From Treponema sp. (GTDB lineage: Bacteria > Spirochaetota > Spirochaetia > Treponematales > Treponemataceae), in assembly GCA_018385315.1 (NCBI GenBank), contig JAHAZJ010000082.1, forward strand, positions 1 through 46,149: a stretch of 46,149 bases of DNA. The letters are read 5' to 3'. The notes beneath the pieces were generated by a model. It did no database searches. It was given only the letters and a program-made list of their open reading frames with translations, and was not told the DNA's origin. Position numbers and translations under genes: made by a program. The first letter of the stretch is position 1. Every line of letters begins with the position of its first letter. Positions 44,092-46,149 of this stretch are shown here, piece by piece.

Positions 44092-45981
44092 ATGAATCGT
44101 AAGACTATTGCCATTTGTGAATCGGGATATCATGCAGATAGTGAAGCAAAAATTATTGCTGAAATCATAAAGAACGCACGGGAAAAGAATATCAATGTTC
44201 TTTTTTTTAATTCCTTAATGGTAAAGGGAGATTTTCCAAAAGGCATTGATAAGGCATCCAACTTAGTATGTGGTGAGTCGGAAATATTTAATTTAATTAA
44301 TTACCAGAAAATTGATGGGCTTATTATTTTTGGTAAATCGATTCAAAAGGAAGAAATTGTTTTTCAGCTTCAGAAGCGATGTGAAAAAAATCATATTCCA
44401 TGTATTAATGTAAATGATCCGGCTCATTTTCTGGAGCATAATGTAACTATTTCTAATGAAGATTCAATGGAACTTGTGGTTGAACATCTTGTAAAAGATC
44501 ATAAGCTTACAAAAATTAATTTTATTGGTGGATATAGAGATAATAAAGAGACTAACGAAAGGTTAAATGCATATAAAAAAGTTCTTACTAAATATAATAT
44601 ACCAGTTGAAGAGGATCGTATTGCTTATGGGCATTTCTGGATGCATGCAGTTGATTGTGTGAAAGAATTCTTAAGAAAAGGTCTTCCTCAAGCAATTGTT
44701 TGTGCCAATGATACTATGGCAATTTTTGTAATAGATTATTTAAAAAATGAAGGGTACAAGATTCCAAAGGACATTATTGTAACAGGTTTTGATGGAAATT
44801 CTGATGCTTTTACATATGAACCATCTTTAACAACTGTTAGGCATCGTTATGAATATGCCGGCTCTGTTGTATTTGAGATGATTGAAAAGCTTATTAATGG
44901 AATTACTCATGTAAAAGATGAAACTATTAAATCTGAATTGATATTGCAGGAATCTTGTGGATGTAAGACAAAAAATAAGAAAGATTACGATTTTATTGTA
45001 AAAAATTATCAAAAAAGAGATGCATTTACAACTTTTACCAAACAAATGGTAAGATCGGATATTTATTTTTTTGATGATGAAAATATTGATGAATTATTCG
45101 ATCATATTTCTACACCTCTTTCTTTTTTTGAGTTAAAAAGTTTTTGTTATTATGTGGATGCCTCTTTTGAAACAAAGGATAGTTATTTTTTGAATACAAA
45201 ATCTGATAAATATGGAATTCCTAAAAAAGTTGTAAGGGTTGTTCCATTTTATTCAAATTATTCTAGTAGTGACATAATTCCTTCTAAAGAAATGCTGAAG
45301 GATGATTTGCAAAAGGATGGGGAACCATGTTTCAAGTTCTTTACCTGCATGTATTATAGAAATAAATGTTTAGGTTATATGGTATATGAACCAAAGGATT
45401 ACCTTACTTTTGAATATAGTTCATTTATGTTATGGGCTTATAATACTTCTGAAAAAATAGGTAGCTTCTATTTAAGAAAAGAACTTGAATTACTTAATCT
45501 TCGTGATCATTTAACTGGATTATATAATCGTCGTGGAATGGAAAAATATTTTAATAAAATATATAAAGAAGTACTTCCAAAGAATGAGTATATAACAATT
45601 ATTTGTATTGATATTGATTATTTGAAACGCATTAATGATAAATTTGGTCATGAAGGCGGTGATAATGCCATTGTTCAAATTGCCAATGCTATTGAAACTG
45701 TTTTTTCTAAAAATGGAATTTGCGTTAGAACTGGCGGTGACGAATTTTGTGTTGTAACTCACTCTGCCAAAAAACAAAATATTGATAATCAAATTAACAA
45801 AGTAACAAAAATTCTTGAAGACTATAACAATAAAAAAATTGTTAACTATCCTGTTATGTGTAGTTGCGGATATTATACTTTATATTCTAAAGACTTTACC
45901 TCTTTTGAAGAAATGCAAAAAATTGCGGATCAGAAAATGTATGAAGTAAAGGCAATGCATCATCACCCAGAAGTGGTTTAA
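44092..45981 (+). CDS. LacI/PBP1-type ligand-binding domain fused to GGDEF diguanylate cyclase
   Basis: N-terminal GLIIFGKSIQ...FIGGYRDNKETNERLNAY...AIVCANDTMAIFVIDYLKNEGYKIPKDIIVTGFDGNSDAFTYEPSLTTVRH; C-terminal DHLTGLYNRRGM...IDIDYLKRINDKFGHEGGD...VRTGGDEFCVV. No obvious TM or signal peptide. Confidence 0.9.
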   Translation: MNRKTIAICESGYHADSEAKIIAEIIKNAREKNINVLFFNSLMVKGDFPKGIDKASNLVCGESEIFNLINYQKIDGLIIFGKSIQKEEIVFQLQKRCEKNHIPCINVNDPAHFLEHNVTISNEDSMELVVEHLVKDHKLTKINFIGGYRDNKETNERLNAYKKVLTKYNIPVEEDRIAYGHFWMHAVDCVKEFLRKGLPQAIVCANDTMAIFVIDYLKNEGYKIPKDIIVTGFDGNSDAFTYEPSLTTVRHRYEYAGSVVFEMIEKLINGITHVKDETIKSELILQESCGCKTKNKKDYDFIVKNYQKRDAFTTFTKQMVRSDIYFFDDENIDELFDHISTPLSFFELKSFCYYVDASFETKDSYFLNTKSDKYGIPKKVVRVVPFYSNYSSSDIIPSKEMLKDDLQKDGEPCFKFFTCMYYRNKCLGYMVYEPKDYLTFEYSSFMLWAYNTSEKIGSFYLRKELELLNLRDHLTGLYNRRGMEKYFNKIYKEVLPKNEYITIICIDIDYLKRINDKFGHEGGDNAIVQIANAIETVFSKNGICVRTGGDEFCVVTHSAKKQNIDNQINKVTKILEDYNNKKIVNYPVMCSCGYYTLYSKDFTSFEEMQKIADQKMYEVKAMHHHPEVV

Positions 45982-46149
45982 ATTAAAGAAAAATAACAAA
46001 CTACACACAGCGCAGTTACCTGAAATGGCTACCGCAGAAAAAAGCCTTCTCAAAACCGCTAGATATCGTCGCTAGACGCTAAGGGCGGCAAGGAAACGAT
46101 TGTTTCCGCCCTTAGAGCCTTTTTGAGAATTCTTTTTTCTGCTCCCGCC
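45977..46149. repeat. Composite inverted-repeat element, copy 2 (truncated by window end)
   Basis: Shares TTTAAATTAAAGAAAAATAACAAnCTnCACACAGCG-(16 nt)-CTACCGC with copy 1; internal GCAGAAAAAAGnnTTCTCAAAA/TTTTGAGAAnnCTTTTTTCTGC and TAAGGGCGG/CCGCCCTTA. Confidence 0.88.

What the first reader, a model, noticed from the sequence alone, without database searches (positions are those of the whole stretch)
45977..46149. Second copy shows a modular design: constant ends, exchangeable stems, and a testable prediction past the window edge
Aligned to copy 1: GGTTTAAATTAAAGAAAAATAACAAnCTnCACACAGCG (only two mismatches), then a different 16-nt block (TCTTAGAGTAAAAGTA in copy 1, CAGTTACCTGAAATGG in copy 2), then identical CTACCGC at identical spacing. 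In copy 1 the variable block is one arm of a perfect stem. The copy 2 window ends in ...GCTCCCGCC, and copy 1 has GCTCTC just before its right arm. If the family keeps this architecture, the bases after 46149 should read about ATTTCAGGTAACTGC (completing GCCATTTCAGGTAACTGC) and later ATTTTTCTTTAATTTAA. The inner stem has also been exchanged (GCAGAAAAAAGnnTTCTCAAAA/TTTTGAGAAnnCTTTTTTCTGC). Constant frames with swapped but self-complementary stems could be barcode-like or evolve by hairpin-templated repair.
Basis: partly seen in the sequence, partly recalled or inferred. Interest (0 to 1): 0.84.

Follow-up and report, generated by a model that had tools for sequence, protein, structure and literature searches.

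The report
Flippable hairpin repeats at gene ends
The repeat at the end of this Treponema contig belongs to a genus-wide family of mobile DNA hairpins that sit just behind genes, probably as two-way transcription stops; their loops stay constant while their paired stems change freely yet always stay complementary, and whole hairpins can flip over or be swapped in place.

Summary
The other predicted end appears nearby only as a variant; its exact form comes after a second hairpin in complete copies.

The repeat is one copy of an undescribed hairpin family in Treponema, found in 60 of 119 species of the genus and in none of 138 other sampled genera of the phylum, except for one marginal hit. Each unit is a roughly 140-160-base three-way-junction hairpin with constant unpaired motifs and freely exchanged stems. 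All 36 pairs covary (1167 double changes against 340 in shuffles). G-U wobble is almost absent (about 1%, against 7% in tRNAs from the same loci).

Units lie a median 29 bases behind stop codons, with no strand preference, between an A-run and a T-run. Between two close species the same site can hold the same unit, the unit inverted, a different hairpin, or nothing.

Best explanation: mobile, invertible two-way terminator hairpins; function and enzyme are inferred. Barcode and rapid hairpin-repair ideas are not supported. New variant of a known kind (REP/BIME, BOX/SPRITE, MITE).

The parts
45975..46012 (+). copy 2: left outer arm of the element, identical to copy 1 except 2 bases; its TTTAA supplies the TAA stop of the upstream gene
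   Evidence: gene ends at 45981; C-terminus ...HHHPEVV* vs ...HHHPEK* in the 82%-identical relative
46013..46028 (+). copy 2: exchangeable 16-base block, 5' arm of outer stem P0 of the type-A hairpin
   Evidence: complement CCATTTTAGGTAACTG found in L004, L005, L007 and, with one change, L006; ATTTTAGGTAACTG directly follows the window end in contig C108
46029..46035 (+). constant internal-loop motif CTACCGC
   Evidence: constant in relatives as CTWCC(A/G)G
46034..46055 (+). stem P1, 5' side (GCAGAAAAAAG and TTCTCAAAA)
   Evidence: covarying in relatives
46056..46078 (+). constant bulge CCGCTAGATATCGTCGCTAGACG carrying the palindromic hexamer GNTANC
   Evidence: perfect GNTANC palindrome in 94 of the 101 matched sequences; folds as a 5-bp third hairpin in G104
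46079..46115 (+). stem P2 (CTAAGGGCGG / CCGCCCTTAG) with constant apical loop around GGAAACGAT
46121..46142 (+). stem P1, 3' side (TTTTGAGAA and CTTTTTTCTGC)
46141..46149 (+). constant 3' loop GCTCCCGCC, cut by the contig end
33491..33530 (+). copy 1: TA target dinucleotide and left outer arm
   Evidence: 42 of 57 arm copies in the genome are preceded by TA
33531..33672 (+). copy 1: complete type-B hairpin, outer stem TCTTAGAGTAAAAGTA/TACTTTTACTCTAAGA
   Evidence: fold z = -8.8; full-length match to the type-A covariance model, E 5.5e-8
33684..33708 (-). copy 1: right outer arm; its GGC TTA AAT TAA encodes the last residues GLN and the stop of the adjoining glucosaminidase gene (33697-34311, minus strand)
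   Evidence: C-terminus EESVGLN* vs EESIK* in the nearest relatives

Best explanation
It is a copy of a genus-wide Treponema family of mobile palindromic repeats. The unit is a 120-160 base hairpin with a three-way junction: outer stem P0, stem P1, a bulge or small hairpin P3, and stem P2. Only Watson-Crick complementarity of the stems and a few unpaired motifs are conserved. Shown: conserved structure, free but compensated stems, placement just behind stop codons, flanking A-run and T-run, variation in presence, inversion and exchange at orthologous sites, and C-termini rewritten by the element ends in both window copies. Inferred: units behave as non-autonomous mobile DNA whose constant unpaired motifs are the recognition sites of a mobilising or inverting enzyme that was not found. 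They are tolerated or kept because the hairpin plus flanking T-run works as a transcription terminator in either direction. Working in both directions, and being flipped, would explain why wobble pairs are avoided.
For: Covariation: all 36 pairs change on both sides; 92.9% of cells paired vs 62.2% shuffled and 35-49% slid; 1167 double-changed cells vs 340 +/- 15 (first seen). A stem arm fits its own partner best in 79-87 of 96 copies. G-U is 0.5-1.5% and A-C 1.4-3.9% of cells, against 7.1% and 0 in 15 tRNAs from the same loci. Spread: 60/119 species of the genus; no other genus of 139 sampled in the phylum except one marginal hit. Position: 3' gene ends at a median 29 bp (n=74) and 0 bp in the own genome (n=14), 5' ends at 82 and 110 bp; element strand vs co-directional genes 11 same, 12 opposite. 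A-run before and T-run after the hairpin base in 84% of 95 copies; single-run control windows 23%. Mobility: TA|GG in 42/57 arms and TA on both sides of several complete copies; insertion-specific C-termini; G104 vs G004 orthologous sites: two same-orientation copies, two inverted in place (identity 0.88 and 0.90 flipped vs 0.64 and 0.59 unflipped), two with other hairpins, two without the unit.
Against: No expression or termination data exist here. The simple terminator scan does not call these long hairpins, and in the window copies the T-run lies about 20 bases beyond the stem. The A:C excess over G:U could mean the opposite strand is weakly preferred. No partner transposase was found: Y1 transposases occur in 29/119 species and do not track the elements, and the own genome has no IS630-type DDE_3 match. 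Inversion rests on two loci in one species pair. Genes were predicted by ORF rules only, and convergent sites are only mildly in excess (22 vs 17 divergent).
Confidence: 0.6

Rival explanations
1. Purely selfish MITE- or REPIN-like elements: they survive behind stop codons only because insertions elsewhere are selected against. The structure is kept for transposition and termination is incidental.
For: Outer inverted repeats with TA flanks and no coding capacity; a burst of near-identical copies in this genome; presence/absence differences between close species; compensated stems are also described for REPINs (PMC3116915).
Against: A- and T-runs flank the hairpin in 84% of copies. At several sites a missing unit is replaced by another terminator-like hairpin rather than by an empty site. 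Units persist at orthologous sites.
Confidence: 0.27
2. The stems stay complementary by a neutral process: template switching or conversion between hairpin arms copies one arm onto the other.
For: Nearly pure Watson-Crick pairing with neither G-U nor A-C favoured as intermediates; in-place inversions show that the arms do interact.
Against: In 21 recent type-B copies of this genome 33 stem changes are single and 1 is compensated; in 7 type-A copies all 7 changes are single. Stems change about half as often as loops there (1.7% vs 3.0%), pointing to selection. The unpaired motifs are the most conserved parts, which arm copying does not explain.
Confidence: 0.1
3. A strand-specific structured RNA (regulatory RNA, riboswitch or ribozyme) present in many copies.
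For: Strong covariation around constant junction motifs looks like an RNA family; lone reports describe compensated intergenic repeats in Borrelia plasmids as RNA motifs (PMC2674063).
Against: No Rfam match. No strand preference relative to genes. Wobble is about one seventh of that in tRNAs and A-C exceeds G-U. Whole units invert in place.
Confidence: 0.05
4. The variable stems are barcodes that mark individual copies for a reading machinery.
For: Within one genome nearly every copy has its own P0/P1 sequence.
Against: Stem variants form graded subfamilies rather than random codes, and inverted or exchanged units occupy the same site. No reader gene or ordering was seen.
Confidence: 0.01

Closest known systems
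SPRITE, RUP and BOX repeats of Streptococcus pneumoniae (PMC3049150)
   Same: Small intergenic repeats with strong secondary structure; BOX is modular; SPRITE resembles a Rho-independent terminator, has AAAA/TTTT ends and sits near 3' ends of genes; RUP and BOX have terminal inverted repeats and target duplications.
   Different: No sequence relation seen; here the stems are exchanged across species around constant internal loops, with a three-way junction, near absence of wobble, and inversion or family exchange at orthologous sites.
REP/BIME/REPIN elements and their RAYT transposases (PMC3116915, PMC3733652, PMC8266576)
   Same: Extragenic palindromes in many copies, inverted pairs, compensatory stem changes, GTAG-type ends that can provide stop codons.
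   Different: Units are 120-160 bases, not 20-40. GTA(G) ends occur as outer inverted repeats only in some species. RAYT-like genes are absent from many element-rich species, and the one in this genome is flanked by a different repeat.
TA-flanked MITEs (Correia/NEMIS, Nezha, RUP type)
   Same: Outer inverted repeat GGTTTAAATTAAAG... flanked by TA, no gene inside, many near-identical copies.
   Different: No IS630-type DDE_3 transposase in this genome. The hairpin core is shared across species whose outer repeats differ.
Intergenic repeats with compensated stems in Borrelia plasmids (PMC2674063)
   Same: Spirochaete intergenic repeats whose stems show base-pair compensation.

Membership tests
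MITE (TA-duplicating type) | terminal inverted repeats | tested here: met
   Left and right arms in complete copies of the own genome, 216-584 bp
MITE (TA-duplicating type) | target-site duplication shown by an empty site | tested here: inconclusive
   TA on both sides of several complete copies and before 42/57 arms, but no nucleotide-level empty site for the own-genome elements: argS neighbours are not syntenic in relatives; protein C-termini show the insertions
MITE (TA-duplicating type) | matching autonomous transposon | tested here: not met
   No DDE_3 transposase in the 95%-complete own genome; none of the arm-bearing loci inspected showed a transposase between the arms
REP/REPIN (RAYT-mobilised) | 20-40 base imperfect palindrome with a one-sided GTAG or CGTC tag | tested here: not met
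   Units are 120-160 bases; GTA precedes GG in own-genome arms but on both sides as inverted repeats
REP/REPIN (RAYT-mobilised) | cognate RAYT in element-bearing genomes | tested here: not met
   Y1_Tnp in 29/119 species; absent from G004, G007 and others rich in elements
bidirectional intrinsic terminator | stable hairpin followed by a T-run on both strands, behind genes | tested here: met
   A-run and T-run in 84% of 95 copies; median 29 bp behind stop codons
bidirectional intrinsic terminator | transcripts end there | not testable with these tools
   No expression data
structured RNA family of Rfam | match to a known family | tested here: not met
   Nothing at gathering score in the window or in six G004 stretches; at E<=1 only tRNAs and two weak sRNA hits far below their gathering scores

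The most novel reading that the evidence does not exclude
Treponema species keep fixed terminator slots behind genes in which whole hairpin cassettes of several families are inserted, flipped and replaced by a dedicated, still unknown enzyme that reads the constant unpaired loops on folded single-stranded or cruciform DNA and ignores stem sequence. This would resemble integron attC recognition, but acting on transcription terminators.
Probability: 0.15. Interest if true: 0.85.

Novelty: new variant of a known kind. Interest (0 to 1): 0.6.

Why it matters
It gives a clear natural case of selection on structure with free stem sequence at very many independent sites, with close species in which the same site holds the same, inverted, exchanged or missing unit. 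That makes two open questions testable: how palindromic repeats keep their arms complementary, and whether bacterial intergenic repeats are recruited as terminators. It also explains why assemblies of these species break here: the window contig ends inside a unit.

Tried and rejected
RAYT/Y1 transposase as partner: presence does not track the elements. IS630-type transposase: none in this genome. Enrichment near tRNA genes, suggested by 3 of the first 7 loci: rejected, 1 of 40 further loci. Known RNA family: none. Phage carriage: no match in viral contigs. Exact arm and core patterns in the GTDB contig collection: no match, although core matches exist in relatives by alignment; records near the window's genome may be left out of that collection. 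Direct empty site for copy 1: argS and the glucosaminidase gene are not adjacent in relatives. The first count on own-genome type-B copies mixed orientations and was corrected.

Full report
What was checked. The two copies share 38 bases with two mismatches, differ in a 16-base block, and resume with CTACCGC at the same spacing. The first 25 bases occur 44 times in the genome with up to three mismatches and never in the reversed control. The window is itself a whole contig (G000:C56), so the prediction could not be read directly. Its final 127 bases are identical to the end of contig C78 and to the start of contig C108, which is what an assembler leaves at a collapsed repeat. C108 continues ATTTTAGGTAACTGCTCC..., 14 of the 15 predicted bases, followed by a degenerate arm GATGTTTTCTTTCATTGGTAAACC. 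In complete copies (L004-L007) the type-A hairpin is followed by a spacer and an inverted type-B hairpin, and only then by the exact outer end TTTTTCTTTAATTTAAACCTA; the complete composite in L006 is 584 bp. So the arm prediction is right, and the outer end lies further away than thought.

The family. The inner part of the type-A hairpin matched many loci in other species of the genus. Protein names of homologues place the genome in Treponema. In some species the bulge is a true third hairpin and a further small hairpin sits in the apical loop, giving a three-way junction. A covariance model found the unit in 60 of 119 sampled species of the genus, with up to 27 scored copies in a genome, and in none of 138 other sampled genera of the phylum except one marginal hit at E 4e-5. 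Copy 1 of the window, type B, matches the type-A model over its full length at E 5.5e-8, so A and B are related. No Rfam family matches.

Constant loops, free stems. Over 114 distinct sequences all 36 pairs show changes on both sides. 92.9% of cells pair, against 62.2% when 3' letters are shuffled and 35-49% when partners are slid; double-changed cells number 1167 against 340 +/- 15. The alignment was fitted to the structure, but the unfitted MAFFT alignment A2 gives the same picture (91.8% vs 71.6%). Within one genome each copy has its own P0 and P1, and an arm fits its own partner best in 79-87 of 96 cases. The hexamer in the bulge is a perfect palindrome GNTANC (GATATC, GCTAGC, GGTACC) in 94 of the 101 matched sequences.

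DNA, RNA or both strands. In tRNAs from the same loci G-U makes 7.1% of canonical pairs and A-C none. In the units G-U is 0.5-1.5% and A-C 1.4-3.9%. Neither wobble form is favoured, as expected if both strands must fold (two-way terminator, cruciform) and not if one RNA strand is selected. In recent own-genome copies stem changes are almost all single (33 vs 1 for type B; 7 vs 0 for type A) and stems change about half as often as loops. Between diverged copies 70-88% of changed pairs are double. This fits slow compensation under selection better than rapid arm copying.

Position. Gene 3' ends face the units at a median distance of 29 bp in relatives and 0 bp in this genome; 5' ends lie at 82 and 110 bp. 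Element strand is random relative to co-directional genes (11 vs 12) (ORF-based gene calls). An A-run before and a T-run after the hairpin base occur in 84% of 95 copies, while single control windows have such a run in 23%. In the own genome the arm begins at the stop codon. The window's diguanylate cyclase ends HHHPEVV* where an 82%-identical relative ends HHHPEK*, and the glucosaminidase ends EESVGLN* where the nearest relatives end EESIK*; the new residues and stops are read from the element arms. This shows insertion at the last codons in both window copies. The 98-99% identical homologues share these ends.

Mobility and exchange. 42 of 57 arms are preceded by TA, and several complete copies have TA on both sides. 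Species G104 and G004 are close enough (mostly 80-92% in flanks) to compare sites, using 1.18 Mb of G004. Two sites hold the same unit in the same orientation, one nearly identical and one with a changed P1. Two sites hold the unit inverted in place: identity 0.88 and 0.90 when flipped, 0.64 and 0.59 when not, with site-specific arms retained. At two sites G004 has another hairpin instead: a type-B-like unit, and a member of a third group with apical loop AAGGAACATTATCC. At two sites the unit is missing. A hairpin scan of G004 shows at least two further groups with constant inner motifs and variable stems, flanked by A and T runs.

Interpretation. Shown: a conserved, wobble-poor, covarying hairpin family behind genes, mobile over evolutionary time, invertible and exchangeable at a site. 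Inferred: termination in both directions as the reason for being kept, and an unidentified enzyme reading the loops. A Y1 transposase and an IS630-type transposase were tested as partners and not supported. Closest described systems are the pneumococcal SPRITE/RUP/BOX repeats (PMC3049150), REPINs (PMC3116915) and GTAG REPs, whose ends can supply stop codons (PMC3733652). Within the open-access papers searched I found no report of such repeats in Treponema.

Limits.

Noticed in passing
G004 (L255-L313): C2:137731-137840, C2:231545-231658, C3:118079-118184, C3:207178-207290, C5:377637-377738: A further hairpin group with constant GTGGGACGC...GTCGCTGGGACCCGC and variable outer stems flanked by A and T runs; one copy occupies the site where G104 has a type-A unit.
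   Followed up: partly
G004 (L255-L313): C2:73561-73698, C2:236791-236930, C3:124647-124765: Another terminator-like hairpin group (GCGTAGCAG...CTCTGCGGGAGC) with constant inner parts.
   Followed up: no
L020:221-440, L024:1552-1772: Own-genome type-A units whose apical loop is replaced by about 90 bases that themselves form a hairpin (GTGTAAGCTCGCC...GAGCGAGCGG): a module nested inside the hairpin.
   Followed up: no
L136:1468-2205: A 245-aa RAYT-like Y1 transposase flanked by a different short repeat (GGGGACAGGGATAA), probably its own element system.
   Followed up: partly
L049:1110-1400 and L051:1480-1770: Own-genome copies in which the type-B core lies inverted relative to the outer arms, compared with window copy 1.
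   Followed up: partly
L086:1502-2038 and L204:2039-2485: Tandem direct repeats of the unit in other species (two to three copies about 200-310 bp apart); G029 has inverted pairs 34 to about 46 bp apart (L201-L203).
   Followed up: no
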